Of a DNA stretch of 64,000 nt, positions 11,936 to 51,959 are shown one piece after another. The notes beneath the pieces are model-generated. The model had not been told where the DNA came from. It did not search any database and saw only the letters and a list, made by a program, of their open reading frames with translations. Source of the stretch: Vicia villosa. Taxonomy: Eukaryota; Streptophyta; Magnoliopsida; Fabales; Fabaceae. The position numbers and the translations under genes are program-made. How positions within the stretch are numbered: the first letter of the stretch is position 1; every line of letters starts with the position of its first letter. Location of the stretch: assembly GCF_029867415.1 (NCBI RefSeq), contig NC_081181.1:74620144-74684143 (forward strand), given 5' to 3'.

Positions 11936-12968
11936 CTTTCCTTTTCTTATCAAAGGTTGAGGGTGCAAACATAAATGCACAATCTCAACATTCATCATCC
12001 AGCGACCAAAATTTAATCCATGGCCAAATGGAAAGAAACTGCCAAATAAGACCAGATCAAGTGAGAGAATAACTCACTAGATTTCTGTTCGTAAGCATCT
12101 GAACAGAATAACTGAAACATATTATCCACATAGAAATAAATTCAGTGGTGATTTCAAGGAAAGTGAGTATTTTCTGCCTAAAGACACTCTAAATGAAAGA
12201 GAAATCTGATTGACAGTAAACTTCATGATAGCAAATATGAATGCATGATTGTTTTTGATGCATGTTAATGATGCATATGCTGCCAAAACTTAGCACAAGG
12301 ATCAACTCAAGAGATAGAGTACAAAAAATAACATAATCAAGCATGCCTCGAGCTGAGCACTCGAAGTATCATCCACAAACAGGATCGAAAATTGCTACAT
12401 CAAACTCTTGATGGCTTCAGAATAAATGCTACCCAATACTGAGGAAACATTGGAACAAAATAGCTGAGTTCTACATCATATTTGAACCAGGGCAAAGGTA
12501 CACCAACTGGAATACATTCTTACTCTTTTGCACCTAAATACATCAACATATCCATTCCTTGTAATGCACTCATGAATCAAAACAAAACTTCTTTTATATT
12601 TTTTCAAAAAAAGATTTTGTTGAAATCAATTTTCTCTTTGTTTCAAAAAGTACTATCAACAATAAATGACATTTTTGAGAGGTATGAAAGAAATAGGATT
12701 GCCAATAACGGGTAAAGGCTCAAACTTTATTAACGGAATGGTAGCCTGCAAAAGGCAAGACCCCATGGATGATTACAAAGTTTGGAAAGTGGTAATTTTG
12801 TGGAAAAAGGTACATTGAAATATAATGACCCAATCCTCTCTCTTAACTTGGAATTCCTGAGCAAAGGCTTCCGTTGAAATGTGTTGAACTTCTCATGATA
12901 AACAAATGACTGCTGATGATCAAGTCTTGTCTGATGTAGTTACTTGCCATGAATCCCTAACTTTTGCC
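11936..12968 (-). other. Non-coding spacer between integrase and repeat array, element II
   Basis: About 1 kb of AT-rich sequence lies on the 3' side of the integrase pseudogene. I see no domain, no convincing frame and no further repeats apart from the hairpin array that begins at 12969. The matching part of element III (21990-23436) keeps only patchy similarity. Confidence 0.6.
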
Positions 12969-13112
12969 TGGACCGCCCTTTCGGGTTTTCAGTCCACCGG
13001 GTATTTTATTCTATTTATGTCTCTAATTTTTGCCTGGACCGCCCTTTCGGGTTTTCAATCCACCGAGACGCTCTTTTTTTTGCCTCAGTCGCCCTTTCGG
13101 GTTTTCAACTTA
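12969..13112 (-). promoter_or_regulatory. Three tandem RNA hairpins after the integrase stop, element II
   Basis: Three units (12969-12996, 13035-13062, 13085-13112) share one fold in minus-strand RNA: a 5-bp outer stem, an asymmetric UGAAAA bulge, a CCC/GGG inner stem closed by a GAAA tetraloop, then CG. Outer stems are UGGAC/GUCCA, UGGAU/GUCCA (one U.G) and UAAGU/ACUGA (one A-G mismatch). The first hairpin starts 23 nt after the integrase stop. Element III has the same array with different but complementary stems. The function is unknown; the structure is inferred from covariation. Confidence 0.75.
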
Positions 13113-13134
13113 GCGAGCTGTTCTTTTATTATTT

Positions 13135-14898
13135 TTAGGCGAAGTATTTCTTGACTACATCAGCATTCACGGGACGTGGGAGCTCTTCTCCATCCATTGT
13201 TGCAAGAATTAATGCACCGCCAGAGAAGGCTTTCTTAGCAACATATGGTCCTTCAAAATTAGGAGTCCACTTGCCCATTGAATCGGAGGTGAAAGACAAG
13301 ATCCTTTTGAGCACGAGGTTGCCTTCTCTGAATACACGAGGTCGAACCTTCTTATCAAAAGCTTTCTTCATTCTTTTCTGGTACAGCAGACCATGGCATA
13401 AAGCCGTCATTCTCTTTTCTTCTATCAAACTCAATTGATCAAACCTTTTCTGACACCATTCAGCCTCAGATAACTTGGTTTCCATTAAAACTCTCAATGA
13501 TGGAATCTCAACCTCGACGGGTAGCACTGCTTCCATACCATAAACCAAAGAAAAGGGGGTTGCCTCGGTTGAAGTACGAACAGATGTACGGTACCCATGC
13601 AAAGCAAATGGGAGCATCTCATGCCAGTCCTTGTACGTAACAACCATCTTTTGAACAATCTTCTTAATATTCTTATTTGCTGCTTCAACAGCTCCATTCA
13701 TCTTAGGCCTATAAGGCGAAGAGTTGTGATGTTCAATTTTGAAACTTTCACACAGTTCTTTCATCATGCTATTGTTCAGATTCGAGCCATTATCAGTGAT
13801 GATCTTGCTCGGTACACCATATCTGCAGATGATGTTGTTCTTGATAAATCTAACCACAACTTGCTTTGTTACATTAACATATGAAGCAGCTTCTACCCAC
13901 TTGGTAAAGTAATCAATTTCTACCAGGATGAATCGATGTCCATTCGAAGCCTTGAGTTCAATCATGCCAATCATATCAATACCCCACATAGAGAAAGGCC
14001 ATGGAGAGGAAATAACATTGAGAAGTGTCGGAGGCACATGAATCTTGTCAGCATACACTTGACACTTATGACACTTCTTTACAAATTTGTAGCAATCAGA
14101 TTCCATTGTCAGCCAATAGTAACCTGCTCTAAGCCTCTTTTTAGCCATCGAATGTCCATTGGAATGAGTACCAAAAGATCCTTCATGAATTTCATGCATC
14201 AACATGTCTGCTTCGTGTCTATCCACGCATCTGAGCAAAACCATGTCATAATTTCTCTTATACAAAACATCCGCATTGATGAAGAAACTGCCAGCCAATC
14301 TCCTCAAAGTTTTCTTATCCTTATCTGATGCCCCAAGTGGGTACTCTTGGGTTTGAAGAAAATGCTTAATATCGAAGTACCAAGGCTTCTCATCTGCTGA
14401 TTCCTCAACTGCAAACACATGAGCAGGTCTATCAAGACGCCTGATTGTAATCCGAGGCTCCTCATTATGGAAATTCACTTTGTACATGGAAGACAATGTG
14501 GCTAAAGCATCAGCCATCTGATTCTCATCTCGAGGGATGTGGTGGAATTCAACTTTGTTGAAGAATGTCAATAGCCTTCTGGCGTAATCTTTGTAAGGGA
14601 TTAAACCAGGATGACGAGTTTCCCATTCTCCATTAATCTGATTAATCACAAGCGCGAAATCTCCATAAACATCAAGAATCTTAATTCTCAGATTAAGGGC
14701 TTCTTCAAGTCCTATGATGCAAGCTTCATATTCAGCAATATTATTTGTACAATCAAAACATATCCTTGTAGTGAAAGGAATATGTGAACCTTGCGGGGTG
14801 ATAATAACAGCACCAATACCATGGCCATGAACATTAGAAGCTCCTTCAAAAATTAAACCCCATTTGGATCCAGGATCTGGTTCTTCTTCTGGAAGCGG
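13135..14898 (-). pseudogene. Archaeal-type RNase H and integrase of element II
   Basis: The frame is open from after the stop at 14899 to 13135. The first part (about 14650-14880) is the second RNase H domain that marks the Tat/Ogre lineage. Its first catalytic Asp is replaced by Glu (FEGA where element III has FDGA), and a conserved YGDSP reads YGDFA. Then come the integrase zinc-binding HHCC region (HEGSFGTH, CHKC) and a DDE core (WGIDMIG, ITDNGSN, GAVEAAN), ending in the C-terminal motif GPYVAKKAFSGGA. There is no chromodomain. The RNase H change and the upstream stop make the polyprotein non-functional. Element III carries the homologue. Confidence 0.88.
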
Positions 14899-15486
14899 CT
14901 AATCCCAATCTTGAGCTCTCAAATACATTATATCTTCATCCGGGAAGTCCATTCTGATAGATTGACGATCATCAATTGGTTGGTGAGCGAGATACTCTGC
15001 CAACGCACTTCCTTTCACAGCTTTTTGAGCTCGATATTCAATATCATATTCAGATAACAACATTTGCCAGCGAGCAATCCTTCCGGTTAATGCAGGTTTT
15101 TCAAATATGTACTTAATTGGATCCATTTTGGAAATCAATAGGGTGGTGTGGTTCAACATATACTGTCTCAGTCGGCGAGCAGCCCACACCAAAGCACAAC
15201 AAGTTTTCTCAAGCAGCGAGTATCTTGTTTCGCACTCGGTAAACTTTTTTCTAAGGTAGTATATTGCATACTCTTTTCGACCAGACTCGTCATGCTGACC
15301 CAACACATATCCCATTGAATTCTCAAGCACTGTGAGGTACATAATCAAAGGTCTTCCTTCAGCTGGAGGGAGCAAAATGGGGGGTTCAAGCAGATATTCT
15401 TTGATGTTGTCAAAAGCTTTCTAACAATCTTTATTCCACACACATCCCTGATTTTTCTTTAACAACTTGGAGATTGGCTCGCAGGT
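14899..15486 (-). pseudogene. RT C-terminus and first RNase H of element II
   Basis: On the minus strand this begins at the solo-LTR insertion point (15486) with the thumb end of RT and continues into the classical gypsy RNase H (YLTVLENSMGYVLGQHD, TGRIARWQMLLSEYDIEY). A TAG follows NKDC at about 15421-15423, and another TAG after QDWD at 14899-14901 where element III has Glu. The missing N-terminal part of RT lies 31 kb away at 46502-47437, beyond the nested insertions. Confidence 0.85.
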
Positions 15487-17185
15487 TGTAACACCCCACT
15501 TTTCCCAATTATAAATTACGGTAAAATAGTAATAATATTATCAGAGTAATTCAACACAAGTGGAATGTCACACTTTTCCAATAAACCAGAAACTAAAGTT
15601 TAAATACTTTATTTATTCGTTTCTCACAAAAAATCAATAATACAGCGGAAATAGTTTTTATTTAAACCAAATCACGGCACACTTGCCACTAACAAACAAA
15701 ATCCACCTTAACTTGTGGTTCTCCAAAAATTAGAATTTAAAAGCGATACGTAACAAAATTCCATAAAATAACATTTGAAATAAATTCCCAAAAATTCCCG
15801 TGTTACGTATCAGAGCGACTCCTAGGACTCGATCAAGCAACACGTACTCCACGTACAGATTAGGTACTTGAGTTACCTGTACTTCCGAAGAAGCAAAGAC
15901 ACAACAAAAAGGAAAGAAAAGGGTGAGAATTACGTTCAATAAATAACGGTGAATAATACATGCTAAGGAGTAGTACTCACACCTATCACACAATATCACA
16001 TAACCACAATTTAACAATCAATTACAATAATGCAATATGACTCCATGTCTTGACACAAATGCATGTGGTACCAAACTCGGTTCATTCAATCGAACCCGAT
16101 TCACTAAGGAATCCGGATAATTCGCATACACTCCACTGAGCAACGAATTATCTCCACAACGACTCCACAAGTGAGTCCGGACCTACTAGGCATCTACCAA
16201 AGATCTCCACCTAGCAGTCTCAATGCGATGATATGCAATGCACCAAAACAATATACACATTAAAATATACACAATATGCATATTACACGATCCGCCCGAT
16301 CCACGATCCCCCTGATCACTCGTAAGCAACGCTTACTGTAATTCACATCGGAATTACAATCGCTGTCCAAATACATCACACAATCAACAATAGCGTTATT
16401 CCGACTAAAACTTGTTAATTGTCAAACCACACCTAGACTGATATTAAATACTGATAATACGCTTCCACGAATATCATTTTTCTGCTAAGGTAATATTACT
16501 GCTAGTTGTCGCGGGCGAAAAATCGTTGTCTTTTTTCGGGATGAGACACCTGATGCCTTCTTTGGGCTCGAGTGCTCAAAAAATGATTTTTCTTTTGTAC
16601 CGACCAAACTTTTTATTGTTTCCAAAAGAGGAAAAGGAAAAAAGCTGCAATAACCTAAAAGTGGGGGGAGAGATCTTTGGGTAAGAGGGTTGGTTTTACG
16701 AAGGGAAGGTATTAGCACCCAACGTATCTATAGTACTCCATAGGTTTCTTTGCTTTGTTTTTCATTCCATGTTATTGAGAGGTTCTTGTGAAATAGGTGG
16801 GACCTAAGGTGTTTGTTTGATTATGCTCGCAAAGATCATCGCGATCCTCTGCATACATATCCCTTAGAGGGAATCAGAGCATCTGTAGCTCGGGTCTACG
16901 GGTGCTAAGGTTTGAATGGTTTGAGGGAGAAGTTTTGCTCGCCAAGGATACGACCTTGTGCCTACGTATTCTCAAAGGGATGTTGAGAAAGTCAGAGCAA
17001 TCGTAGTTCCCACTTATGCTAGTGGAAGCAAAGGAAAAGAGACAAATGTCATCTCAATGCTAGATGTATCTAATCTATATCATCACATACATCTGTTTGT
17101 TTTTGTTTGAAAATCTGTTCATTATAAGCCCTGGGCCATGCCACTTATGGCGCTTAGAATGATAAAGATGTTTTTATTTGTTTAA

Positions 17186-17395
17186 CCAGCCTTGTGGCAA
17201 AAACTTTCAATGAAGTCAGCTTTGTGACAAAAAGTTTTGATTAATCAGCCAGCCTTGTGGCAAAAGTTTCAATGAAGTCAGCCTTGTGACAAAAACTTTG
17301 ATTAATCATCCAGTACGGTGGTAAAACAGATTGATTGATTAGCCAGCCTTGTGGCAAAAAGAAGTTTGATTGATTATCCAGACTTGTGGCAAAAA
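17186..17395 (-). repeat. CAAGGC-loop mini-hairpin array in Ogre III LTR
   Basis: Seven imperfect units of about 30 bp follow one another. Read on the plus strand, each has a stem around the loop GCCTTG: CCA/TGG in five units and TCA/TGA in two, so both sides change together. Each is followed by caaaa. The same loop with longer stems recurs in the 3' UTR at 21775-21977. The matching array in the 5' LTR is at 40732-40941. Confidence 0.75.
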
Positions 17396-17511
17396 AGTTT
17401 GATTGATTGATTGTTTGTGATGATATAGAAGAGATACTCCTATCATAGAGATGATAAATGTCTAATCTCCTAGGGTATTTGTTTTGGATATTGGGGATGA
17501 TTATAAGAAGC

Positions 17512-17775
17512 CCGTGGGTCCTTGTACGAAGCCCAAGAGGAGGCTATTCGAGGGTCCTTGCATTGTAAGCCCAAGAGGAGGCTATGGGAGGGACAATCCA
17601 GGGTCCTTGCATTGTAAGCCCAAGAGGAGGCTATGGGAGGGTCACTCGTTTGTACAAAGCCCAAGGGGAGGCATGGTATAGTTGGTTTGAGCTCTTAGAG
17701 CGATTTCACCGGGAAACCATACTCTATGTCCTAACCTAAACTAGTGGAGATTCTTTGCACGAAGCCCAATAGGAG
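17512..17775 (-). repeat. aagcccaagaggaggct repeat array in Ogre III LTR
   Basis: Five copies of agcccaagaggaggctatgg-type units lie within 260 bp. Most contain the inverted repeat AGCC/GGCT around an 8-nt loop; one copy (near 17657) has lost it. The second LTR has the same array at 41058-41321. Confidence 0.75.
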
Positions 17776-18859
17776 GCTATGGGGAACCTAGTGTTGTACT
17801 AAGTTGAACAAGCACACATATCACACATATGAACAAACATGAACAAGTATGAACAAACATGAACAGGTATGAACAATTATATATATATGACAGAGTGTGT
17901 GTATATAATGGAGTTTATGAAGGAAATATACCTGTAAGCATGATCCATTTGTATACACGGGGGCTCGGGACTCATACTCGGGGAGAGACCCACTTGAGTT
18001 TATTCAAAGCTATGTAAACAAGTATTTACAAAGGGCTTGGGACTTATACCTACATGGAGGCCCATGGTATTTTTGGGAAGATTTAAAGAAAACCTTCATT
18101 TTTTGATTTGTTATTCAAAGTTAAAAAACAAACTGATCGAGGTATGTACAAAAAGGTGTGTGTACAATGAAATACCTAATTTCATGTACAGGAATGGGAC
18201 TTATACCTATGTGGAGGCCCATGTTTTATTTTATAAAACATGGTTGATTGTTTTGAAAAAAGATGCGAGGTTTGAAAAACTGTTTGAAAGTTTTTTGTTT
18301 TGAAAGAAGTTTATTGTTTAAAGAAGAAAAAAACTGTATAAAAGGAAAAAGGAGTGGGTCTTATACTCTCTAATATTCGAGAGGCCCCACATCGTTTTGA
18401 AAATCAATTGATCAATTAAAAAGATTTAATCAATAGTTTCAAAAAGAAATGGTTTATCGTCTTTGAAAAGAATCGCGATCGCTTGTTTTAAATCGGTTTG
18501 AATTTTGAAAGGAGTCAAATTAATCAAGATAAACAAAAAGATTATCTTCAATTAACACTTAGATGATCAGGGTTTGCTCAAAAAATATTTACAAGTGATT
18601 AAGTTTGAAAATCAAATGAAAAATAATATTTAAAAGTATTAAAAATACTTAAAAATAAGTCATTTTAAACCTATTTAAAAATGTATCAAATAAATATATT
18701 TTGATGATTTTTTTTGATATTCTTAAAATATATGTGTTAAACAAGAAGTGTGTAAAAAATGAAATTAAAATGAGCTAATTTGATTGGTCAATTAATTACT
18801 TAAAGTTGTGTAAAAAATGGAAGAAAAATAGTGATAAAAAATATGTTTTGGCCCCTAGA

Positions 18860-18914
18860 GGTGTTGAACTCGTGACCTGAGGGTTACCACTCAAAAACAA
18901 TACCAACTGGACCA
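18860..18914 (-). other. tRNA-like A-box/B-box segment in Ogre III LTR
   Basis: On the minus strand TGGTCCAGTTGG (18903-18914) matches the RNA polymerase III A box, and GAGTTCAACACC (18860-18871) matches the B box imperfectly. They are 31 nt apart, the spacing of a tRNA gene, and the intervening sequence resembles tRNA-derived SINE heads (GTAACCCTCAGGTCACGAG). It is in the sense direction of the element. It is probably an old SINE head or tRNA remnant; it does not fold into a complete tRNA. The 5' LTR copy is at 42406-42460. Confidence 0.6.
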
Positions 18915-19869
18915 CGCGCGTGGTCTGACTAACAAAGGCAAGGATTTGGTTATATTTCAAACTCAATTTTTGAATTTCCTTCGCAAAAAATGGCGCCAAG
19001 AACACCATCCCCATTTGAATTTGAAAATCTCTGAAACTGAACCAAATTGATCAAGTGAAGGGTCTATCTCACTCGTTTTTTCACAAGGAACATGATGGTA
19101 CCATTTAATTTCATTAATTTTTACCCTAAGATCATTGATTTTCTGATGAACACGAAGAACCCTAATTTCTGAGTTTCAATCTGAAATCGTGTATGTGCAA
19201 GATAAGTTGCAATTGATTGAGGGTTAATGATCCTCATGTGTGCAGAAATGAGATGGTATGTTCATATTTCATTCATGATGCATGATTCATAGAGTTTGAA
19301 ATTCAAGTAGCTTACCTTCAAAAACGGCAAAAGTGAGAATCGAATTCTGCAAATGAGGAGTTCTAGTTGTTGTTTCTTGATCTGAACACCTTCAGTGGAC
19401 CTTATGGAACATGTTTGGATGCCTGGAACAATTTGAAAACCTCTTGATCAATCCATGGTACTCGATCTGCAGTATGGTTCAAGTGAGGATCAAGCTTAGT
19501 GATTTTGGTGTTTCAGATCATGTATGATGGTTGGAACAGTTCATATGAAGTATATGGATGATGTTTAGAAGGTTAGTTTGGACAGAATTTGCTTGGTATG
19601 GATTTTGGCATGATAAGGCTAGTGTTATGCATATTTGGAGGTGAGATGATGATTCTGAGTTTTGGGATGATTTGAGGTGTGTGAATGGTTCAAACACATC
19701 ATATATGATGTTTATGAGATGTTAGAATCATTACTTTGGCCAGAACTTCAAGGGTTTGGAGGTTGAGTTTTCTACCTCTCTTTGAAACTTAAAACTTGCA
19801 ATTCAAGAAAGAAAGAGAAAACATATCTTTTGTGAGGTTTTGGTGTGATTTTGAATGGAGTTTGGACCT

Positions 19870-19879
19870 CTATTTATAG
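19870..19879 (-). promoter_or_regulatory. TATA box of Ogre III 3' LTR
   Basis: The minus strand reads CTATAAATAG followed by aggtcc, matching the box in LTR I. It sets the U3/R border near 19840. The same box in the 5' LTR (43416-43425) would drive the genomic RNA. Confidence 0.65.
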
Positions 19880-21463
19880 GCCAAAGTGTCTGAACTCAGA
19901 GCTTTGCAACTTGCTTCAAGAATTGGTGATTTGGCGTAAGAGATAAAAAGGAATCTTTTACATTTAATGCAAAATGGTTAAAGTGACCAAACCATGGTTA
20001 AAACTCAAGCTTCTTATCCTCTTCCATTCTGATCTCAAATCAGAAAAATATCTTCAATTATTGCCTCTATGCATCATTATTTGGATCATTTGGCAAATTG
20101 GTTCATAACTTAGTGAAAATGGCATGAAATTTCAAGTGAAAAGTTCACTAATGTCAAAATTCAAAACCATGGCTACACTCCATATTTTTTCATGCTCTTG
20201 GACATTTTGGAAAGCTCATCTTGCATACTTCAAAACCCTAGTTGAAAGTTTCTTCAAGACCTTTAAGGAAATGGGTGAAAAAGATCCATGAACTTTGAAG
20301 AAAATGAGATTTTGAGTGAAGTTTTCAAAAAGTACCAACTTTGAAGCTCCATATCTCTTAAATGGTTGATCTTATGGAAAAAAATTATATGTGTCAAAGT
20401 TGTTTATTGGATCAAAATCTACAACTTTCATGTTGGAAGTTTTTTTCAGTTTGTAGGTGAAATTTTGAGTTATTCCCTTCCAAAGTTTGGAAAAAACCAT
20501 TGAAAAACACTTAGAAAATTTTCTAAGTATGAAAAGTCAAACTTTGACTTTTTGATTCTTGATTGATTTTCTTGATTTTTCTTGATCAAATGACTTCTCA
20601 TATCATATATTGATGATTCAAAACTTCAAAAGTCATGGTTGACCAAAATTCCCAAAAGTCAAAGGTGTTCTTGTACAGTTGACTTTTTCAGACGAATCGT
20701 GTTTCTGGAGATTTCAAATGAAACAGGCTATCCTCACCAAATGAATGGTATGAATGGATCTCATTGAAGCATTAGAGGTTATTGAGCCATGTTTTGAGTT
20801 GTAGCATCATTTCCTGATTAAAAAGTCAGTTGTTCAGTGAATTAGGTCAAAAAACCCTAATTGTCGACCAGATGAAATTGATGACTGTAGGTCTTGAATT
20901 GAGATGTAATTTCCATTGGATTTTGTCATAGGGATTATTTGAGGATGATTGAAACTTTTGATTGACTTCCTGGGGATTTTTAGGGTTTCCCAAATGTGAT
21001 CCCTGATTTCAGTCCCTGACAGTTCAAAAACCCTTATCTGATGATTTGAATTTTCACTGTTGATCAATCCTTGTGTAGGAGATATTCTGAGTCAATGGAT
21101 TAGGTCAAAATGATGCACTTGGGGTATTGAGGTCATGTCCCAAGTCATTAGATCAAATTCTGAGCAAAAGTCAGGAGTATGCTATCTTCAGTCAAAACCC
21201 TAATTTGATTATTTCAGAGCCTTTGAGATTGTTGAAATGAATCTCTGAGGACCAAATGTTGATTATTGATGAAGATAATTCTTTTGAGATGAAGGGAGAA
21301 CAAAACCCTAATTGATTGTTACTTGTACTAATGAGTGATTTCTTGATTAAACCCTGCTGAGTCACAAGTAGCAAACACAAGCTATGCAATTTGTTAGAGA
21401 TGCAAATGATGCATATGCAGATGATATGAGGTGGTATCTTAGGTCAAAAATTGGGGTATGACA

Positions 21464-21476: not shown

Positions 21477-23436
21477 AAGTTTCTTCAACCTGAGACATGA
21501 AGATTGAAAATCTTCGTTTTGATAGGGTGGAAGAGACTTAAATATTAGAAGACGCAAATTTTGGACCTAAGATACCAAAATTGCGAATGATGCAAGGATA
21601 TCTTTACCGAGGGATATCAAAACTGACTCTACTGGGGACAAAAGATTGAGAAGGATGTCTCAATCCGTTTTTAGGAAGAGAATCCGTTTTTTTTTCTTTT
21701 GCGGGAAAGCAAGTGTATGCTTCACCGGGGAATGATAGCTTTGTAAGAAAAAGCTTACCTATCGACATTACCGACTATCAGCACAGGGATAGACTTGTTA
21801 ATAATGCGAAGGTGAAAGGTATGAAACTGTATTACCGACTACCAGCATTGTGATAGACTTGACAAGGTAAAAAGAGTTTCAAAGGTTCGGTTAATATTAC
21901 CGACTATCAGCCTTGTGATAGACATGTTGAATAATATAACCAGAACAAAAGGTTACCGACTACCAGCCTCGTGATAGTGGTTTTGAAGACATGATCAATT
22001 ATCAGCCAAGTGACAAAATGATCCTGGAGACTTTGCTAGGGGAATTACTGGTTATTCAGCCTTGTGAACAGTAATAAGGCCCTAATTGTCAAATGGTCTT
22101 CATGATTGATTTCCTAGAGAGGAAGAATCTTTTGAAAGAGACATAAGCTGCTCTGATGACGAGGCTATTGCTTATTGTCTATTTTTTCACGACTCTGTTT
22201 GAGGAATCGGAATTTGAATCTTTGGTAAAGACAGGGTTCTAACCAAGAATGAATTGGAAAGAAACAATCAAACAAGACTTTGTACCCATGAGGAATGAAC
22301 TCAGCTGGGGATTTTCTCCTTTGTTTTGAGAGGAGAAAACTAAAGCAACCTTCTTCCACGAGGAATGATCTCAGTGGGGAACTGGAGAAAGAAGATGTTC
22401 TTTCTGCTCATGGGTGACAACCTACTGGAGAGATGACACGCCCATATCTGCTTTGTTTTTTTCTTTTTCTTTTTTTTTTCTTTTTCTTCTACTTTTTTGG
22501 GATAGATATATCCTAAACAAGTGATTTTAAGCAGACATTGAAAAATGCAAGAATGCATAAATGATGCAAATATGTATGAATGATGAATGTCATGAATGTC
22601 GCAAGCATGCTAACAATACTGACAGACAGCGAAGTATACTGGAGAGGGACCGACGTCGCAATACAACCAGATACTTGGCAAATGTTTTTCAACACGGTGT
22701 AGATAACACGGGTGATGAATGGTGTTGCGTGCTTTAGACTTCTCTGGGGAAGATAAGCATTTTTCCTTATTGAGATGGAAGAACCTTTTCACTGGAGATA
22801 GAAAATCTTCGTTACTGGGGATAAAAGACCTTCTTCAATGGGGATAGAAGAGCTTCTCCACTGGGGATAGAAGAGCTTCTTTACCTCGAGGGATAATTGC
22901 TTCAAGAATTCTTTTCTGGGACAAGAATACCGTTGTCTCAACAATTTTTCAGGGAGAATCCTTTTGTTCATCCTATGGAGACGACTGCTGATGTTCCTTC
23001 CGTTGTTCACAACTCAAAGGAAAATTTTGCTTTTATTTTGAAAAAGAAAAGTGAAGTAAATTCATTTAAAACTTATTTTTTTCTTCTTTTTTTTTTTTCA
23101 AAAGTGAATAACACAATTAAAGCGTCATTTTGCAAGCTGAAAGAAATTAAAGATTGCAAACAAATGGGCACAAGGCTCAAATTTATTTAATAGGATGGTA
23201 ATCAGCTAAAGGTGTGATTCCATGGAGTATTTACAAAAGTTGGAAATGGTAATTATGCGGAAAAGGCTACATTGAAAGCAATAACCACTATTCCCCCTAA
23301 CAACTTTGAGTTCCAACTGTGCTTGTCGCTTCAGATTGGCGATGATTTGATTGAAGATCCTTTGATGAAAAAGACTCCTCAGGTGACAAAGTACGGACTG
23401 ATGCAGTTACTTTGTCATTACTCCCTAATTTTTGCC
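21477..23436 (-). other. Repeat-rich 3' UTR of Ogre III
   Basis: This stretch has no coding domains. It contains four hairpin units with 6-nt stems around GCCTTG-like loops (21775-21792, 21839-21856, 21904-21921, 21960-21977). A set of actggggatagaag units lies at about 22795-22880, and pyrimidine tracts near 22445-22495. The several 60-97-codon frames overlap on both strands and show no family features. Confidence 0.75.
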
Positions 23437-23583
23437 TAGATTGCCCTTTCAGGTTTTCAATCTACCAGGATGAATTTTTTTCTGTTTATTGTCTCTAATT
23501 TTTGCCTGGACCGCCCTTTCGGGTTTTCAGTCCACCGAGACGCTCATTTTTGCCTAAGTCGCCCTTTGCGGGTTTTCGACTTA
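23437..23583 (-). promoter_or_regulatory. Three tandem RNA hairpins after the integrase stop, Ogre III
   Basis: Units at 23437-23464, 23507-23534 and 23555-23583 share the fold seen in element II. Sense-strand outer stems are UAGAUU/AAUCUA, UGGAC/GUCCA and UAAGUC/GACUUA, all fully paired although the sequences differ. The first unit also has CCU/GGG in the inner stem, a U.G pair in sense RNA. The loop is GAAA in two units and GCAAA in the third. The nearest hairpin starts 24 nt after the integrase stop. Confidence 0.78.
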
Positions 23584-23606
23584 CCGAGCTGTTCTTTTGT
23601 AATTTT

Positions 23607-25519
23607 TTAGACAAAGTATTTCTTGACTGCATCAGCATTCACAGGATATGGGAGTTCATCACCATCCATGGTTGCAAGAGTCATGGCGCCGCCAGAAAAT
23701 GTTCTTTTGACAACATACGGGCCTTCGTAATTAGGAGACCATTTGCCCCTAGAATCTGGTTGAAAAGACAAGATCTTTTTAAGCACGAGGTCGCCTTCTT
23801 GAAATTCACGAGGTCGAACCTTTTTGTTGAAGGCTTGTTTCATCCTTGCTTGGTATAACTGTCCATGGCATAGAGCAGTCATACGTTTTTCTTCGATTAA
23901 GTTCAACTGATCGTATCTACTTTGACACCATTCAGCCTCTGATAACTTAGTCTCCATGAGGACTCTCATTGATGGGATTTCAACTTCTACGGGGAGCACA
24001 ACTTCCATGCCGTATACTAGAGAAAAGGGAGTTGCCCCTGTTGAAGTACGCACTGAAGTACGGTACCCATGTAAAGCAAATGGCAGCATTTCATGCCAGT
24101 CTTTGTAAGTGACGACCATTTTCTGGACAATCTTCTTAATGTTCTTGTTGGCAGCTTCAACGGCGCCGTTCATTTTTGGTCTGTAAGGAGAAGAGTTATG
24201 ATGCTCAATCTTGAATTCCTCACATAATTCTTTCATCATTTTGTTGTTCAAGTTTGAACCATTATCAGTAATGATCTTGCTGGGAATACCATATCGGCAA
24301 ATGATGTTATTCTTGATAAACCTCACAACCACTTGTCTTGTAACATTGGCGTAAGATGCTGCTTCGACCCATTTGGTGAAGTAATCAATGGCTACCAGGA
24401 TGAAACGATGACCGTTTGAAGCTTTTGGTTCGATCATTCCAATCATGTCGATACCCCACATGGAGAAAGGCCATGGAGATGAGAGAACGTTGAGTAGAGT
24501 CGGTGGCACATGGATCTTATCTGCATAGATCTGGCACTTGTGACATCTCTTCACGTGTTTGTAACAGTCTGATTCCATTGTCAACCAATAGTATCCTGCT
24601 CTTAAGATCTTCTTGGACATTGCATGCCCGTTTGAATGAGTTCCAAAGGACCCTTCATGCACTTCATGCATTAACATGTCTGCTTCGTGTCTATCCACGC
24701 ATCTGAGCAAAACCATGTCGAAGTTTCTTTTGTATAGCACATCTCCGTTCAGGAAGAAACTGCCAGAAAGTCTTCTTAGAGTTTTCTTATCTTTGTTTGA
24801 TGCCCCAAGCGGGTACTCTTGAGTTTGAAGGAAGCGTTTGATGTCGTGAAACCACGGTTTATCATCGATGACTACTTCGGTTGCAAACACATAGGCGGGC
24901 CTTTCAAGGCGCGTGATTCTGACTTTAGGCACATCATTCCAGTGACTGACTTTGAACATGGAAGATAGAGTAGCCAAGGCGTCTGCCATTCGATTCTGAT
25001 CTCGAGGTATATGATGCAATTCAACCTTGTTGAAGAAAGTCAACAGACGTCTTGCATAATCTCTGTAAGGAATCAAGCCAGGGTGGTAAGTTTCCCACTT
25101 GTCTTTGATTTGGTTGATCACGAGGGGTGAATCTCCATATATGTCGAGGATCTTGATCCTTAAGTCAATGGCTTCTTCGAGACCCATGATACAAGCTTCA
25201 TATTCTGCGATGTTGTTGGTGCAATCAAATAGCAATCTGGCGGAGAACGGGATATGAGTACCCTTGGGAGTGATGATGATTGCCCCAATTCCATTGCCAA
25301 AAGCGTTTACTGCTCCATCAAAAATTAGGCCCCATCTTGATCCAGGATCAGGACCTTCTTCAGGTAACGGTTCGTCACAATCTTTCATCTTCAAGTACAT
25401 GACATCTTCATCAGGGAAGTCAAACTTGAGAGATTGATATTCATTAATTGGCTGATGTGCCAAGTGATCGGCGAGAATGCTTCCTTTGACCGCTTTTTGA
25501 GCATGGTATTCGATGTCAT
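23607..25519 (-). CDS. RNase H-integrase of Ogre III, first assembled copy, cut by gap
   Basis: This is a partial copy of the 29533-31773 reading frame, identical in protein as far as it goes. It carries the last part of the first RNase H, the archaeal-type RNase H and the whole integrase. It stops at the assembly gap rather than at a biological boundary. I read it as the end of one contig overlapping the start of the next, not as a second gene. Confidence 0.85.
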
Positions 25520-25619
25520 NNNNNNNNNNNNNNNNNNNNNNNNNNNNNNNNNNNNNNNNNNNNNNNNNNNNNNNNNNNNNNNNNNNNNNNNNNNNNNNNN
25601 NNNNNNNNNNNNNNNNNNN
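25520..25619. other. Assembly gap (100 N)
   Basis: Exactly 100 N separate two stretches of near-identical sequence; the round length suggests a placeholder of unknown size. Frames running through it are meaningless. Confidence 0.99.
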
Positions 25620-28600
25620 AAACACATCATATATGATGTTTATGAGATGTTAGAATCATTACTTTGGCCAGAACTTCAAGGGTTTGGAGGTTGAGTTTTC
25701 TACCTCTCTTTGAAACTTAAAACTTGCAATTCAAGAAAGAAAGAGAAAACATATCTTTTGTGAGGTTTTGGTGTGATTTTGAATGGAGTTTGGACCTCTA
25801 TTTATAGGCCAAAGTGTCTGAACTCAGAGCTTTGCAACTTGCTTCAAGAATTGGTGATTTGGCGTAAGAGATAAAAAGGAATCTTTTACATTTAATGCAA
25901 AATGGTTAAAGTGACCAAACCATGGTTAAAACTCAAGCTTCTTATCCTCTTCCATTCTGATCTCAAATCAGAAAAATATCTTCAATTATTGCCTCTATGC
26001 ATCATTATTTGGATCATTTGGCAAATTGGTTCATAACTTAGTGAAAATGGCATGAAATTTCAAGTGAAAAGTTCACTAATGTCAAAATTCAAAACCATGG
26101 CTACACTCCATATTTTTTCATGCTCTTGGACATTTTGGAAAGCTCATCTTGCATACTTCAAAACCCTAGTTGAAAGTTTCTTCAAGACCTTTAAGGAAAT
26201 GGGTGAAAAAGATCCATGAACTTTGAAGAAAATGAGATTTTGAGTGAAGTTTTCAAAAAGTACCAACTTTGAAGCTCCATATCTCTTAAATGGTTGATCT
26301 TATGGAAAAAAATTATATGTGTCAAAGTTGTTTATTGGATCAAAATCTACAACTTTCATGTTGGAAGTTTTTTTCAGTTTGTAGGTGAAATTTTGAGTTA
26401 TTCCCTTCCAAAGTTTGGAAAAAACCATTGAAAAACACTTAGAAAATTTTCTAAGTATGAAAAGTCAAACTTTGACTTTTTGATTCTTGATTGATTTTCT
26501 TGATTTTTCTTGATCAAATGACTTCTCATATCATATATTGATGATTCAAAACTTCAAAAGTCATGGTTGACCAAAATTCCCAAAAGTCAAAGGTGTTCTT
26601 GTACAGTTGACTTTTTCAGACGAATCGTGTTTCTGGAGATTTCAAATGAAACAGGCTATCCTCACCAAATGAATGGTATGAATGGATCTCATTGAAGCAT
26701 TAGAGGTTATTGAGCCATGTTTTGAGTTGTAGCATCATTTCCTGATTAAAAAGTCAGTTGTTCAGTGAATTAGGTCAAAAAACCCTAATTGTCGACCAGA
26801 TGAAATTGATGACTGTAGGTCTTGAATTGAGATGTAATTTCCATTGGATTTTGTCATAGGGATTATTTGAGGATGATTGAAACTTTTGATTGACTTCCTG
26901 GGGATTTTTAGGGTTTCCCAAATGTGATCCCTGATTTCAGTCCCTGACAGTTCAAAAACCCTTATCTGATGATTTGAATTTTCACTGTTGATCAATCCTT
27001 GTGTAGGAGATATTCTGAGTCAATGGATTAGGTCAAAATGATGCACTTGGGGTATTGAGGTCATGTCCCAAGTCATTAGATCAAATTCTGAGCAAAAGTC
27101 AGGAGTATGCTATCTTCAGTCAAAACCCTAATTTGATTATTTCAGAGCCTTTGAGATTGTTGAAATGAATCTCTGAGGACCAAATGTTGATTATTGATGA
27201 AGATAATTCTTTTGAGATGAAGGGAGAACAAAACCCTAATTGATTGTTACTTGTACTAATGAGTGATTTCTTGATTAAACCCTGCTGAGTCACAAGTAGC
27301 AAACACAAGCTATGCAATTTGTTAGAGATGCAAATGATGCATATGCAGATGATATGAGGTGGTATCTTAGGTCAAAAATTGGGGTATGACAGATGCCCCT
27401 ATTTAAGTTTCTTCAACCTGAGACATGAAGATTGAAAATCTTCGTTTTGATAGGGTGGAAGAGACTTAAATATTAGAAGACGCAAATTTTGGACCTAAGA
27501 TACCAAAATTGCGAATGATGCAAGGATATCTTTACCGAGGGATATCAAAACTGACTCTACTGGGGACAAAAGATTGAGAAGGATGTCTCAATCCGTTTTT
27601 AGGAAGAGAATCCGTTTTTTTCTTTTGCGGGAAAGCAAGTGTATGCTTCACCGGGGAATGATAGCTTTGTAAGAAAAAGCTTACCTATCGACATTACCGA
27701 CTATCAGCACAGGGATAGACTTGTTAATAATGCGAAGGTGAAAGGTATGAAACTGTATTACCGACTACCAGCATTGTGATAGACTTGACAAGGTAAAAAG
27801 AGTTTCAAAGGTTCGGTTAATATTACCGACTATCAGCCTTGTGATAGACATGTTGAATAATATAACCAGAACAAAAGGTTACCGACTACCAGCCTCGTGA
27901 TAGTGGTTTTGAAGACATGATCAATTATCAGCCAAGTGACAAAATGATCCTGGAGACTTTGCTAGGGGAATTACTGGTTATTCAGCCTTGTGAACAGTAA
28001 TAAGGCCCTAATTGTCAAATGGTCTTCATGATTGATTTCCTAGAGAGGAAGAATCTTTTGAAAGAGACATAAGCTGCTCTGATGACGAGGCTATTGCTTA
28101 TTGTCTATTTTTTCACGACTCTGTTTGAGGAATCGGAATTTGAATCTTTGGTAAAGACAGGGTTCTAACCAAGAATGAATTGGAAAGAAACAATCAAACA
28201 AGACTTTGTACCCATGAGGAATGAACTCAGCTGGGGATTTTCTCCTTTGTTTTGAGAGGAGAAAACTAAAGCAACCTTCTTCCACGAGGAATGATCTCAG
28301 TGGGGAACTGGAGAAAGAAGATGTTCTTTCTGCTCATGGGTGACAACCTACTGGAGAGATGACACGCCCATATCTGCTTTGTTTTTTTCTTTTTCTTTTT
28401 TTTTTCTTTTTCTTCTACTTTTTTGGGATAGATATATCCTAAACAAGTGATTTTAAGCAGACATTGAAAAATGCAAGAATGCATAAATGATGCAAATATG
28501 TATGAATGATGAATGTCATGAATGTCGCAAGCATGCTAACAATACTGACAGACAGCGAAGTATACTGGAGAGGGACCGACGTCGCAATACAACCAGATAC

Positions 28601-31445
28601 TTGGCAAATGTTTTTCAACACGGTGTAGATAACACGGGTGATGAATGGTGTTGCGTGCTTTAGACTTCTCTGGGGAAGATAAGCATTTTTCCTTATTGAG
28701 ATGGAAGAACCTTTTCACTGGAGATAGAAAATCTTCGTTACTGGGGATAAAAGACCTTCTTCAATGGGGATAGAAGAGCTTCTCCACTGGGGATAGAAGA
28801 GCTTCTTTACCTCGAGGGATAATTGCTTCAAGAATTCTTTTCTGGGACAAGAATACCGTTGTCTCAACAATTTTTCAGGGAGAATCCTTTTGTTCATCCT
28901 ATGGAGACGACTGCTGATGTTCCTTCCGTTGTTCACAACTCAAAGGAAAATTTTGCTTTTATTTTGAAAAAGAAAAGTGAAGTAAATTCATTTAAAACTT
29001 ATTTTTTTCTTCTTTTTTTTTTTTCAAAAGTGAATAACACAATTAAAGCGTCATTTTGCAAGCTGAAAGAAATTAAAGATTGCAAACAAATGGGCACAAG
29101 GCTCAAATTTATTTAATAGGATGGTAATCAGCTAAAGGTGTGATTCCATGGAGTATTTACAAAAGTTGGAAATGGTAATTATGCGGAAAAGGCTACATTG
29201 AAAGCAATAACCACTATTCCCCCTAACAACTTTGAGTTCCAACTGTGCTTGTCGCTTCAGATTGGCGATGATTTGATTGAAGATCCTTTGATGAAAAAGA
29301 CTCCTCAGGTGACAAAGTACGGACTGATGCAGTTACTTTGTCATTACTCCCTAATTTTTGCCTAGATTGCCCTTTCAGGTTTTCAATCTACCAGGATGAA
29401 TTTTTTTCTGTTTATTGTCTCTAATTTTTGCCTGGACCGCCCTTTCGGGTTTTCAGTCCACCGAGACGCTCATTTTTGCCTAAGTCGCCCTTTGCGGGTT
29501 TTCGACTTACCGAGCTGTTCTTTTGTAATTTTTTAGACAAAGTATTTCTTGACTGCATCAGCATTCACAGGATATGGGAGTTCATCACCATCCATGGTTG
29601 CAAGAGTCATGGCGCCGCCAGAAAATGTTCTTTTGACAACATACGGGCCTTCGTAATTAGGAGACCATTTGCCCCTAGAATCTGGTTGAAAAGACAAGAT
29701 CTTTTTAAGCACGAGGTCGCCTTCTTGAAATTCACGAGGTCGAACCTTTTTGTTGAAGGCTTGTTTCATCCTTGCTTGGTATAACTGTCCATGGCATAGA
29801 GCAGTCATACGTTTTTCTTCGATTAAGTTCAACTGATCGTATCTACTTTGACACCATTCAGCCTCTGATAACTTAGTCTCCATGAGGACTCTCATTGATG
29901 GGATTTCAACTTCTACGGGGAGCACAACTTCCATGCCGTATACTAGAGAAAAGGGAGTTGCCCCTGTTGAAGTACGCACTGAAGTACGGTACCCATGTAA
30001 AGCAAATGGCAGCATTTCATGCCAGTCTTTGTAAGTGACGACCATTTTCTGGACAATCTTCTTAATGTTCTTGTTGGCAGCTTCAACGGCGCCGTTCATT
30101 TTTGGTCTGTAAGGAGAAGAGTTATGATGCTCAATCTTGAATTCCTCACATAATTCTTTCATCATTTTGTTGTTCAAGTTTGAACCATTATCAGTAATGA
30201 TCTTGCTGGGAATACCATATCGGCAAATGATGTTATTCTTGATAAACCTCACAACCACTTGTCTTGTAACATTGGCGTAAGATGCTGCTTCGACCCATTT
30301 GGTGAAGTAATCAATGGCTACCAGGATGAAACGATGACCGTTTGAAGCTTTTGGTTCGATCATTCCAATCATGTCGATACCCCACATGGAGAAAGGCCAT
30401 GGAGATGAGAGAACGTTGAGTAGAGTCGGTGGCACATGGATCTTATCTGCATAGATCTGGCACTTGTGACATCTCTTCACGTGTTTGTAACAGTCTGATT
30501 CCATTGTCAACCAATAGTATCCTGCTCTTAAGATCTTCTTGGACATTGCATGCCCGTTTGAATGAGTTCCAAAGGACCCTTCATGCACTTCATGCATTAA
30601 CATGTCTGCTTCGTGTCTATCCACGCATCTGAGCAAAACCATGTCGAAGTTTCTTTTGTATAGCACATCTCCGTTCAGGAAGAAACTGCCAGAAAGTCTT
30701 CTTAGAGTTTTCTTATCTTTGTTTGATGCCCCAAGCGGGTACTCTTGAGTTTGAAGGAAGCGTTTGATGTCGTGAAACCACGGTTTATCATCGATGACTA
30801 CTTCGGTTGCAAACACATAGGCGGGCCTTTCAAGGCGCGTGATTCTGACTTTAGGCACATCATTCCAGTGACTGACTTTGAACATGGAAGATAGAGTAGC
30901 CAAGGCGTCTGCCATTCGATTCTGATCTCGAGGTATATGATGCAATTCAACCTTGTTGAAGAAAGTCAACAGACGTCTTGCATAATCTCTGTAAGGAATC
31001 AAGCCAGGGTGGTAAGTTTCCCACTTGTCTTTGATTTGGTTGATCACGAGGGGTGAATCTCCATATATGTCGAGGATCTTGATCCTTAAGTCAATGGCTT
31101 CTTCGAGACCCATGATACAAGCTTCATATTCTGCGATGTTGTTGGTGCAATCAAATAGCAATCTGGCGGAGAACGGGATATGAGTACCCTTGGGAGTGAT
31201 GATGATTGCCCCAATTCCATTGCCAAAAGCGTTTACTGCTCCATCAAAAATTAGGCCCCATCTTGATCCAGGATCAGGACCTTCTTCAGGTAACGGTTCG
31301 TCACAATCTTTCATCTTCAAGTACATGACATCTTCATCAGGGAAGTCAAACTTGAGAGATTGATATTCATTAATTGGCTGATGTGCCAAGTGATCGGCGA
31401 GAATGCTTCCTTTGACCGCTTTTTGAGCATGGTATTCGATGTCAT
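25620..31445. repeat. 5.83-kb duplicate of 19692-25519, probable false duplication
   Basis: Sequence right after the gap restarts at the equivalent of 19692 inside the 3' LTR (end of LTR at 27391), then repeats the 3' UTR, hairpins (29363-29390, 29433-29460, 29481-29509) and integrase up to the base where the first contig stops (25519 equals 31445). The only difference I found is a T run of nine at about 21688 against seven at about 27615. That is what two overlapping contigs left unmerged would look like. Confidence 0.9.
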
Positions 31446-31773
31446 ATTCGGATAACAGCATTTGCCATCGGGCAATCCTTCCGGTTAATGCAGGCTTTTC
31501 AAAGACATACTTGATCGGATCCATTTTGGAGATTAACCAAGTAGTATTGTTGATCATGTATTGGCGGAGACGTTTTGAAGCCCAAGCCAAAGCACAACAT
31601 GTTTTTTTGAGCATGGAGTAACGAGACTCACAGTCTGTGAATTTCTTACTCAAGTAATAGATGGCATGCTCCTTCTTACCGGTTTCATCTTGCTGTCCAA
31701 GCATACAAACCATGGATTCTTCTAAAACAGTAAGGTACATGATTAATGGTCTTCCTTCAACCGGAGGAATCAA
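29533..31773 (-). CDS. RNase H, archaeal-type RNase H and integrase of Ogre III
   Basis: The 746-residue frame holds, in order: the classical gypsy RNase H (about 1-135); an archaeal-type RNase H (about 168-300) with D177, E215, D239 and D289 in FDGA, AEYEA, YGDSP and MADAL; the integrase zinc region (H397, H404, C435, C438); and the DDE core D467, D528, E564 with the standard 35-residue spacing. The C-terminus ends in GPYVVKRTFSGGAMTLATMD without a chromodomain. Dual RNase H is diagnostic of Tat/Ogre elements. The frame continues from RT in the same phase and is cut off only by a TAA at 31783-31785. Key residues are intact. The start at 31773 is just the first ATG after that stop. Confidence 0.92.
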   Translation of the reverse strand: MIPPVEGRPLIMYLTVLEESMVCMLGQQDETGKKEHAIYYLSKKFTDCESRYSMLKKTCCALAWASKRLRQYMINNTTWLISKMDPIKYVFEKPALTGRIARWQMLLSEYDIEYHAQKAVKGSILADHLAHQPINEYQSLKFDFPDEDVMYLKMKDCDEPLPEEGPDPGSRWGLIFDGAVNAFGNGIGAIIITPKGTHIPFSARLLFDCTNNIAEYEACIMGLEEAIDLRIKILDIYGDSPLVINQIKDKWETYHPGLIPYRDYARRLLTFFNKVELHHIPRDQNRMADALATLSSMFKVSHWNDVPKVRITRLERPAYVFATEVVIDDKPWFHDIKRFLQTQEYPLGASNKDKKTLRRLSGSFFLNGDVLYKRNFDMVLLRCVDRHEADMLMHEVHEGSFGTHSNGHAMSKKILRAGYYWLTMESDCYKHVKRCHKCQIYADKIHVPPTLLNVLSSPWPFSMWGIDMIGMIEPKASNGHRFILVAIDYFTKWVEAASYANVTRQVVVRFIKNNIICRYGIPSKIITDNGSNLNNKMMKELCEEFKIEHHNSSPYRPKMNGAVEAANKNIKKIVQKMVVTYKDWHEMLPFALHGYRTSVRTSTGATPFSLVYGMEVVLPVEVEIPSMRVLMETKLSEAEWCQSRYDQLNLIEEKRMTALCHGQLYQARMKQAFNKKVRPREFQEGDLVLKKILSFQPDSRGKWSPNYEGPYVVKRTFSGGAMTLATMDGDELPYPVNADAVKKYFV

Positions 31774-36104: not shown

Positions 36105-37367
36105 CTACGGAGTAAACCCCGGATTCGGTGCGGTATTAACGACTGGTGTGACAGCAGCAATCTGTCGTTGACGATTGACATTTCCTCTTGGCCTCCCTTG
36201 GGATACCATGTCAACACTTTGTTCCTTCTTCTTTGGGAAACCACTTCCGAACTTTTTGGTTCCGCTTGAAGATCCACCTTCTTTAGTTAGGCGTCCGGTT
36301 CGGACTCCTTCTTCTAAACGCATACCCATGTTTACCATTTCGGTGAAATCACTTGGAGCACTAGCAATCATGCGTTCATAATAAAACGGACTGAGAGTAT
36401 TCAAGAAGATCTTTGTCATCTCTTTCTCTTTTAACGGTGGATTAATCTGAGCAGCAGTTTCTCTCCATCGTTGGGCATACTCTTTGAAAGCTTCATGGTC
36501 TTTCTGAGCCATGGATCGAAGCTGATCTCTGTCCGGAGCCATATCCGAGTTATACTTGTATTGTCGGACAAAGGCCTCACCTAGGTCATTGAATGTTCGA
36601 ATATTAGTGCTATCCAAGCCTGTGTACCACTTCAGTGCGGCACCAGTTAAACTGTCTTGAAAGTAATGGATAAGCAACTGATGATTATCTGCATAAGTAG
36701 ACATCTTCCTGGCATACATCACAAGATGGCTTTGTGGACAAGAACTACCTTTGTACTTCTCAAAGTCTGGGACCTTGAATTTAGCAGGTATTTGTACACT
36801 GGGAACCAAACATAGCTCCTGGGCATTCTTTCCAAACAAATCTTTTCCACGGATAGCTTTAACTTCAAGCTGCATCTTGTTAAACTGCTCTTGGAGATCT
36901 CCCACAAGATTACGCTGATTTGTGCTATCACCTTGATCATGATAAATCTCATTGCCATCATAAGGAACAGTGTGAACCGTAGGGGTCGGAACTGTCATAG
37001 TGGGTTGAGAAAGTGCCATAGTGACTTGAGAAAAAGTTACCCCCTGATTTGGAGTGAACTGTGAACTTTGTGCAGCAGGCGCTTCAGTTGTGGATGTTTG
37101 AATCCCAGAAACATTATGGCGGAAACCTGTACCGAAGCTGAAAGGCGTGCCCCAACCTTCTAACATGGAAAAAGATGGAATGCTGAACGCCACTGTAGAA
37201 ACTGGAGTGGTGACTTTAGATGTCACTATTGCTTGACTGTTTGGTGGCGGCGGCTGATTCTGTGCGGCCATTAAGGAGTCAACTAGAGTAGTGAGACTTT
37301 CCAACTTTTCCTGAAGGGTGGTCACTGTACCACGAAGCTCAATATTCTCTTGTTCAGAGTGTTCCAT
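36105..37367 (-). CDS. Gag of Ogre III
   Basis: The 420-residue frame starts with a short coiled coil (EQENIELRGTVTTLQEKLES) and a Gln/Pro/Thr-rich linker. It then has the retrotransposon gag domain at about 200-350, with SLTGAALKWYTGLDS, FVRQYKYNSDMAPDRDQLR and FKEYAQRWRETAAQINPPL. Gag forms the cytoplasmic capsid. Upstream of the ATG the frame stays open for about 26 codons (YNTRSSRR), so the true N-terminus may lie further 5'. The frame ends at a TAG followed in phase by a Gln-rich segment leading into the protease ORF. Element II has no stop here, so this is probably a point mutation. Confidence 0.9.
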   Translation of the reverse strand: MEHSEQENIELRGTVTTLQEKLESLTTLVDSLMAAQNQPPPPNSQAIVTSKVTTPVSTVAFSIPSFSMLEGWGTPFSFGTGFRHNVSGIQTSTTEAPAAQSSQFTPNQGVTFSQVTMALSQPTMTVPTPTVHTVPYDGNEIYHDQGDSTNQRNLVGDLQEQFNKMQLEVKAIRGKDLFGKNAQELCLVPSVQIPAKFKVPDFEKYKGSSCPQSHLVMYARKMSTYADNHQLLIHYFQDSLTGAALKWYTGLDSTNIRTFNDLGEAFVRQYKYNSDMAPDRDQLRSMAQKDHEAFKEYAQRWRETAAQINPPLKEKEMTKIFLNTLSPFYYERMIASAPSDFTEMVNMGMRLEEGVRTGRLTKEGGSSSGTKKFGSGFPKKKEQSVDMVSQGRPRGNVNRQRQIAAVTPVVNTAPNPGFTP

Positions 37368-47747: not shown

Positions 47748-47786
<39 letters not shown>

Positions 47787-49943: not shown

Positions 49944-49964
49944 TTGTTGAGGTTGATTTCTAGA

Positions 49965-51957: not shown

Positions 51958-51959
51958 AG

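What the first reader, a model, noticed from the sequence alone, without database searches (positions are those of the whole stretch)
12969..13112. Covarying triple RNA hairpin just after the Ogre integrase stop (element II copy)
Three tandem units keep one fold (outer stem, UGAAAA bulge, CCC-GAAA-GGG, CG, outer stem) while the outer stems vary. Compared with element III, stems are UGGAC/GUCCA, UGGAU/GUCCA, UAAGU/ACUGA, UAGAUU/AAUCUA and UAAGUC/GACUUA, so both sides change together. All three non-Watson-Crick pairs that keep the fold are U.G in element-sense RNA but would be C-A in antisense; only one A-G mismatch breaks the pattern. The distance from the stop is 23-24 nt in both elements. This indicates a selected RNA structure (3'-end, export, packaging or translation role unknown). 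I know of no named family for it.
Basis: partly seen in the sequence, partly recalled or inferred. Interest (0 to 1): 0.88.

Follow-up and report, generated by a model that had tools for sequence, protein, structure and literature searches.

The report
Conserved RNA hairpin module in Ogre retrotransposons
Right after the last gene of giant plant "Ogre" jumping elements sits a row of small RNA hairpins whose two sides change together and stay paired; gene-poor relatives still carry them, so they look like an address label on the element's own RNA rather than a chance repeat.

Summary
Each unit in element-sense RNA: outer stem P0, G[G/C], 7-bp stem P1, AAAA bulge, 3-bp stem P2 with GAAA-type loop, P1', GGCAAAARUUA, P0'. 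In 50 arrays (138 units; window plus 48 loci of the same genome) 1357 of 1380 P1/P2 cells pair; 148 are G.U in sense, 1 is A.C. On an integrase-based tree 1148 of 1170 cells pair, null 997±39, 0 of 1000 as high; one-sided changes break a pair in 0 of 16 internal-branch and 13 of 30 tip cases. 29 of 30 integrase-anchored loci carry three units. A pattern fixing only P0 and the internal loop has 18,181 matches, reversed control 1; interiors differ. Of its 30 fetched loci (28 places) 4 have integrase within 1.5 kb upstream, 19 gag or a gag trace instead, 7 neither. One, flanked by identical LTR-like pieces, shows gag and no pol. So it is a cis-acting RNA element not bound to pol; Gag recognition/packaging is my inferred best role, untested. 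No Rfam match; not described in the papers seen.

The parts
13070..13119 (-). Element II unit 1 (nearest the integrase stop): P0 GCUC/GAGC, P1 UAAGUUG/CGACUGA with one A-G mismatch, AAAA bulge, CCC-GAAA-GGG
   Evidence: model hit E 1.1e-16; the unit is a member of the model
13018..13069 (-). Element II unit 2: P0 GUCUC/GAGAC, P1 UGGAUUG/CGGUCCA (two U.G)
12952..13003 (-). Element II unit 3: P0 CCC/GGG only, P1 UGGACUG/CGGUCCA
23538..23590 (-). Element III unit 1: P0 GCUC/GAGC, P1 UAAGUCG/CGACUUA, loop GCAAA
   Evidence: not listed by the model search, perhaps because it overlaps unit 2 by 4 nt
23490..23541 (-). Element III unit 2: P0 GUCUC/GAGAC, P1 UGGACUG/CGGUCCA
23420..23471 (-). Element III unit 3: P0 UCCU/GGGA with one U.G, P1 UAGAUUG/CAAUCUA, CCU-GAAA-GGG
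29346..29516 (-). Second copy of the three units of element III, in the internal duplication
13135..14649 (-). Element II pol C-terminus (part of RNase H, integrase); its stop precedes the array
23607..25625 (-). Element III RNase H-integrase ORF, copy in the duplication
29533..31773 (-). Element III ORF with RT_RNaseH, RVT_3 and integrase domains
16507..21463 (-). 3' LTR of element III (TGTCATACCCC...GCGACA)
   Evidence: (99.8% to 40053-45009)
40053..45009 (-). 5' LTR of element III
36105..37367 (-). gag of element III (PF03732)
37710..39233 (-). Extra ORF of element III (DUF7745); that Ogres carry such an ORF is recalled

Best explanation
The array is a cis-acting RNA element of the element's own transcript. 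Shown by sequence: tandem modules P0 - G[G/C] - P1 - variable interior - GGCAAAARUUA - P0' are kept as base-paired structure in sense RNA across Ogre subfamilies that are 61-79% identical at the integrase end (L063, with an odd flank, left out), and occur in relatives that have gag and no integrase next to the module. Inferred: the conserved unpaired letters (G[G/C] facing GGCAAAARUUA, held between P0 and P1) are the binding site; several modules in a row give several sites; the partner is most likely Gag, made by autonomous and gag-only elements, which selects this RNA for packaging. Stems and interiors then act as scaffolds whose letters may drift as long as they pair.
For: Structure. Strand: 148 G.U and 1 A.C of 1380 cells; over 34 distinct unit types 45 and 1 of 340. 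Kept in lineages, decaying after insertion: from a canonical pair, internal branches keep 20 and break 1, tips keep 17 and break 13, Fisher p 0.003 (P1+P2). Constancy: 29 of 30 integrase-anchored loci. Not bound to pol: of 30 frame loci 4 have integrase, 19 gag or a gag trace without integrase, 7 neither within 1.5 kb upstream. L132: direct repeats identical over 1205 nt (taken as LTR pieces), one open 485-aa gag frame, no tblastn match to RT or integrase of element III, a module pair. L134: gag, no match to pol, modules. [quoted passage not shown] BARE2, which makes no Gag, is packaged and keeps packaging signals (PMC3735527, passage).
Against: No binding, expression or mobility data; the Gag step is inference. 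Packaging sequences of Ty1, Ty3 and HIV-1 lie in the 5' end (PMC11381356, passage). An export or stability element would also be kept by gag-only elements. Seven of 30 frame loci show no gag within 1.5 kb, and two of the 19 (L118, L119, one place) only a 31-aa trace. Tests of single helices are weaker: double changes in P1 alone reached by 41 of 1000 null runs, P2 alone not decisive. One subfamily has lost P1 pair 7 in unit 3. L028, L040 and L062 type arrays have fewer standard units.
Confidence: 0.42

Rival explanations
1. Nuclear export element: the modules recruit export factors so that the unspliced, intron-holding Ogre RNA leaves the nucleus, like CTE, RTE or MTE of animal retroelements.
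For: [quoted passage not shown] The place between the last ORF and the 3' LTR fits CTE-type elements (recalled). Repeated internal loops suit several binding sites.
Against: Plants use TREX rather than TAP/NXF1 (PMC12786077, passage), so the known CTE receptor is missing. Gag-only elements presumably lack that intron (not tested) yet keep the module.
Confidence: 0.22
2. RNA stability element: the modules slow decay or deadenylation of the long transcript, as the ENE does in Evade.
For: The ENE of Evade lies in the spacer between ORF and downstream LTR and raises RNA stability and mobility (PMC12501189, passages). Such a role would also be kept by gag-only elements.
Against: ENE needs U-rich internal loops (same passages); the loops here are A-rich in sense RNA. 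Another way of slowing decay stays open.
Confidence: 0.17
3. Translation or NMD element acting at the integrase stop codon.
For: The first unit sits about 20 nt after the stop in the three-unit families.
Against: In elements with gag and no integrase the module lies roughly 0.6-1.1 kb after the end of gag (L103, L131, L132, L134). Spacing differs in other families.
Confidence: 0.08
4. DNA-level palindromes: repeats made perfect by template switching or recombination, without RNA function.
For: Template switching can change both arms at once (recalled).
Against: DNA palindromes need no strand-specific wobble; here 148 sense G.U stand against 1 A.C. One-sided steps such as C-G to U.G and U.G to U-A are seen. 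Loops and the internal loop are conserved as well.
Confidence: 0.04
5. Ordinary 3' UTR tandem repeats of Tat/Ogre elements (satellite seeds).
For: Ogre 3' UTRs carry hypervariable tandem repeats (PMC7004042, passages).
Against: Those vary in sequence and length; this array keeps its place and loop letters across families and covaries.
Confidence: 0.04

Closest known systems
ENE poly(A)-binding element of the plant LTR retrotransposon Evade
   Same: structured RNA between the last ORF and the 3' LTR of a plant LTR element (passages of PMC12501189)
   Different: ENE loops are U-rich and bind poly(A); the loops here are A-rich in sense RNA, in tandem modules with exchangeable interiors
CTE / RTE / MTE export elements of animal retroelements
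   Same: cis-acting RNA of a retroelement; 3' position recalled
   Different: no Rfam match; plants lack the NXF1 route; kept beside gag in elements without integrase
Packaging signals of retroviruses and LTR retrotransposons
   Same: stem-loops with unpaired conserved letters; kept by elements that depend on others (BARE2)
   Different: 3' rather than 5' position; Gag binding untested
Hypervariable 3' UTR tandem repeats of Ogre/Tat
   Same: same general region, repeated units
   Different: conserved, structured, covarying; not hypervariable

Membership tests
Ogre (Tat, Ty3/gypsy) as the carrier | gag, protease, RT, RNase H, second RNase H between RH and integrase, extra 5' ORF, long LTRs | tested here: met
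   gag, RT, RT_RNaseH, RVT_3, rve, DUF7745, LTRs of 4957 nt; the protease match is below the Pfam cut-off; primer site not tested
Any Rfam 15 family | match at gathering score | tested here: not met
   0 in the window; only E 1.6 to 8.2, far under the cut-offs
ENE | U-rich internal loop in sense RNA | tested here: not met
   sense loops are GGCAAAARUUA and AAAA
CTE/RTE/MTE | promotes export of unspliced RNA | not testable with these tools
   needs an assay
Retroelement packaging signal | bound by Gag and needed for encapsidation | not testable with these tools
   needs binding or particle assays
Retroelement packaging signal | kept in elements that must use enzymes in trans | tested here: met
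   (L132 and L134 read over 10 kb, the rest over 1.5 kb); shared with other cis-acting roles
Hypervariable Ogre 3' UTR tandem repeat | monomers vary strongly between elements | tested here: not met
Conserved coding sequence | one frame kept through the units | tested here: not met
   sense spacings 50 and 66 (II), 48 and 70 (III), not all multiples of three, stops between units; one antisense frame is open through the three units of II

The most novel reading that the evidence does not exclude
Ogre and its gag-only relatives share one structured RNA label, a 2 x 11-nt internal loop held between two drifting stems and repeated in tandem, by which Gag picks their RNAs: a 3'-located, multi-copy packaging code of plant LTR retrotransposons, with more than ten thousand copies in one genome, read in trans, and with interiors exchanged between families.
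Probability: 0.37. Interest if true: 0.85.

Novelty: new variant of a known kind. Interest (0 to 1): 0.72.

Why it matters
Ogre-type elements make up a large share of Fabeae genomes (recalled). How their RNA is exported, packaged or shared with pol-less elements is open; a 2025 review says that export of LTR element RNA has not been studied directly in plants (PMC12786077, passage). A defined, covarying RNA module shared by autonomous and gag-only elements gives a concrete object for structure probing, pull-down and reporter tests, and a sequence tag linking pol-less elements to possible helpers.

Tried and rejected
Without result: viral contigs by hairpin pattern (13 loci; the flanks printed looked unrelated, taken as chance) and by integrase (none); genome contigs by integrase (none) and by pattern (10 bacterial loci, taken as chance, not inspected). 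Rfam. Pairing of GGCAAAAA with UUUUUGCC in the LTR (cyclization): three sites in each LTR of element III, but in an LTR minisatellite; L133 and L134 have none, L132 one outside the repeats seen; rejected. A 5' splice-site reading of GGUAAGU in some units was dropped, since other families have GCUAAGU. Antisense ORFs of other plants agree with pairing, but codon degeneracy leaves about two informative pairs per unit; used only for spread. P0 by best offset is weak: 4-5 of 5 pairs in 127 of 138 own units but also in 106 of 256 cross-unit controls. Left out of the tree tests: ten arrays without three standard units, and L063 with an odd flank.

Full report
What is there. The window is C2:74620144-74684143 of a 2.035-Gb genome (unnamed, a Fabeae legume by inference). 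Two Ogre-type LTR elements lie on the minus strand. Element III spans 16507-45009, LTRs 99.8% identical, with gag, RT, RNase H, integrase and DUF7745 ORFs. It seems to have inserted into the older element II, of which 12685-15456 and 46495-50489 align to III at 68-77% identity. The finding lies just after the integrase stop of II.

Fold. Single units fold in sense with z -1.7 to -2.6; the antisense of the same units gives z -0.2 to -1.75. The arrays give z -2.30 and -2.35. In III all three units form P0, P1 and P2 in the best fold of 207 nt. In II the best fold of 195 nt pairs unit 1 otherwise, while a slightly longer stretch forms it. In L062 and L066 several P0 stems are missing from the best fold. 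Energies alone would not carry the claim.

Sampling. The 12-mer CCCGAAAGGGCG occurs 5929+5931 times in the genome, its reversed control 42+56. I took 48 loci, all from one end of contig C1, plus the two window elements: 50 arrays, 138 units (40 arrays with three, 8 with two, 2 with one). The sample is selected for that core in one unit per array, and units for a near core and GGCAAAA within two changes, not for P1 or P0. P1 and P2: 1357 of 1380 cells canonical, 148 of them G.U, 1 cell A.C. Of the 23 misses 14 are the seventh P1 pair. Bulge AAAA 138 of 138 (favoured by the selection); GGCAAAA exact 120 of 138.

Free of the hairpin. A pattern for the integrase end gave 4507+4521 matches, control 78+77. 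Of 30 loci fetched 29 have three units; L080 has none and looks like a chance AT-rich match. Many of these loci are elements of the first sample.

Covariation. On 30 distinct units 99.0% of 300 cells pair; 6 of 10 pairs change on both sides (1 of 500 shuffles as high); 0 of 500 shuffles reach the paired fraction or the covariation score; the count of further pair types is lower than in all shuffles (12 against 13.9). Sliding the partner by one column drops pairing to 47-54%. That set mixes paralogous units. So I compared orthologous positions on an integrase-based tree of 39 three-unit arrays. P1 and P2: 1148 of 1170 canonical, null 997±39, 0 of 1000 as high; pair-keeping double changes 4, null mean 0.94, 10 of 1000 as high. 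P1 alone: 798 of 819, 0 of 1000; double changes 3, 41 of 1000. P2 alone: 350 of 351, 48 of 1000. Changes from a canonical pair: internal branches keep 20 and break 1 (a double change), tips keep 17 and break 13, Fisher p 0.003; P1 alone 0.015, P2 alone 0.33. With P0: 1672 of 1716 against 1394±55, but there the P0 partner was chosen by best offset. The tree has few deep branches, so independent events are few. Majority P1 arms of ten clusters pair throughout, but for pair 7 of unit 3 in one cluster and in L063; three clusters are single copies.

P0 on its own. Anchoring on P1 arms and GGCAAAA, unit A shows GCUC/GAGC, GCCU/AGGC, GCCC/GGGC and ACCC/GGGU; 48 of 54 modules have four pairs at the best of eight offsets; unit B 32 of 37.

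Model search. A covariance model of the 30 units finds 7 of the 9 window units and two weak sites, E 0.34 and 3.5, elsewhere; the missed two are unit 1 of both III copies.

The wider module. The pattern CCCGS-N(16-46)-GGCAAAARTTAGGG gives 9111+9070 matches, control 0+1. Interiors seen in the 100 rows listed: the CCC-GAAA-GGG type, CAAACC..GGUUUG, UAAGUC..GACUUA, UGGAC..GUCCA and UGACUGU..ACAGUUCA with a bulge. In the 30 fetched loci 26 of 26 unique interiors begin and end with three complementary bases (ends dealt anew: mean 17.1, highest 22 in 1000). Folding energies of interiors are weak (mean z -1.2).

Carriers. The 30 loci are 28 places (L118/L119 and L123/L124 are pairs from one array each). 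By tblastn 4 have the element III integrase within 1.5 kb upstream, 19 have gag or part of it and no integrase (L118/L119 only 31 aa), 7 have neither; by place 4, 18 and 6. A far-diverged integrase could have been missed. In the 10-kb locus L132 two direct repeats, taken as LTR pieces, are identical over 1205 nt; one open 485-aa frame matches Retrotrans_gag; RT and integrase of element III find nothing at E 1e-4; the module pair lies about 630 nt past gag. L134 has gag, no pol match and modules; no LTR pair in the stretch held. L133 shows only the 31-aa gag trace. So the module survives the loss of pol, in L132 in what looks like a recent insertion.

Other plants. The antisense frame through the units of II matches predicted peptides: 70 with E up to 10, 16 with E up to 0.001; 256 and 260 for two alignments, 120 listed each. 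The only plant named in the listed rows is Medicago truncatula; names are rare, most rows are short unnamed contigs, some the window's own source. Their frames read as TGGAC/GTCCA-like and CAAGT/ACTTG-like units. One is filed under Pseudomonas syringae on a 260-nt contig, probably plant DNA. No DNA of these could be had.

Function. What is shown fits any cis-acting role of the transcript. Packaging through Gag is my first choice because gag-only elements keep gag and the module, and because Ty3 and BARE2 give precedents (passages). Export and stability come next; a role at the stop codon is disfavoured. No tool here can decide between them.

Novelty. Paper searches: (listings). Passages found by term were seen in PMC7004042, PMC6317226, PMC4974528, PMC12786077, PMC10309623, PMC3902901, PMC12501189, PMC3735527 and PMC11381356; no paper was read whole. 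None of this describes the structure; 'hairpin' occurs 0 times in the main text of PMC6317226. The main Ogre papers (Macas and Neumann 2007; Macas et al. 2009; Steinbauerova et al. 2008) were not read; the last is not held, the others were not looked up. An earlier mention there cannot be ruled out.

Noticed in passing
window 19692-31445: Element III holds an internal tandem duplication: 19692-25519 repeats at 25620-31445 with 99.97% identity, including part of the LTR, the hairpin array and the RNase H-integrase end. Recombination product or assembly artefact.
   Followed up: partly
window 51959-64000: Ty1/copia ORFs on the plus strand; a second copia ORF set (56506-61415) lies between two identical 341-nt stretches (55164-55504 and 63660-64000), with a Transposase_32 ORF at 62039-63196.
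   Followed up: no
L026, L062, L066, L067, L068: Other Ogre families have, right after the integrase stop, units with a plain hairpin interior (CAAACC AAAAG GGUUUG or close; UAGGU..ACCUA or close), then two standard units.
   Followed up: partly
L028, L040 (after the integrase stop): CCUGAUC with a long A-rich loop and GAUCAGG (L040), CCUGAU with AUUAGG (L028), then CAAAAG: perhaps a worn first unit that still pairs.
   Followed up: no
L132, L134: Elements with an open gag frame and no pol match beside the module; possible partners of autonomous Ogres.
   Followed up: partly
window 17203-17395 and 40749-40941: LTR minisatellite of element III with UUUUUGCC in its units, complementary to the conserved GGCAAAAA; none in L133 or L134, one in L132 outside the repeats seen.
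   Followed up: yes
P0026: A 70-aa 'Pseudomonas syringae' protein on a 260-nt contig reads like the antisense of the plant hairpin array; probably plant contamination.
   Followed up: no
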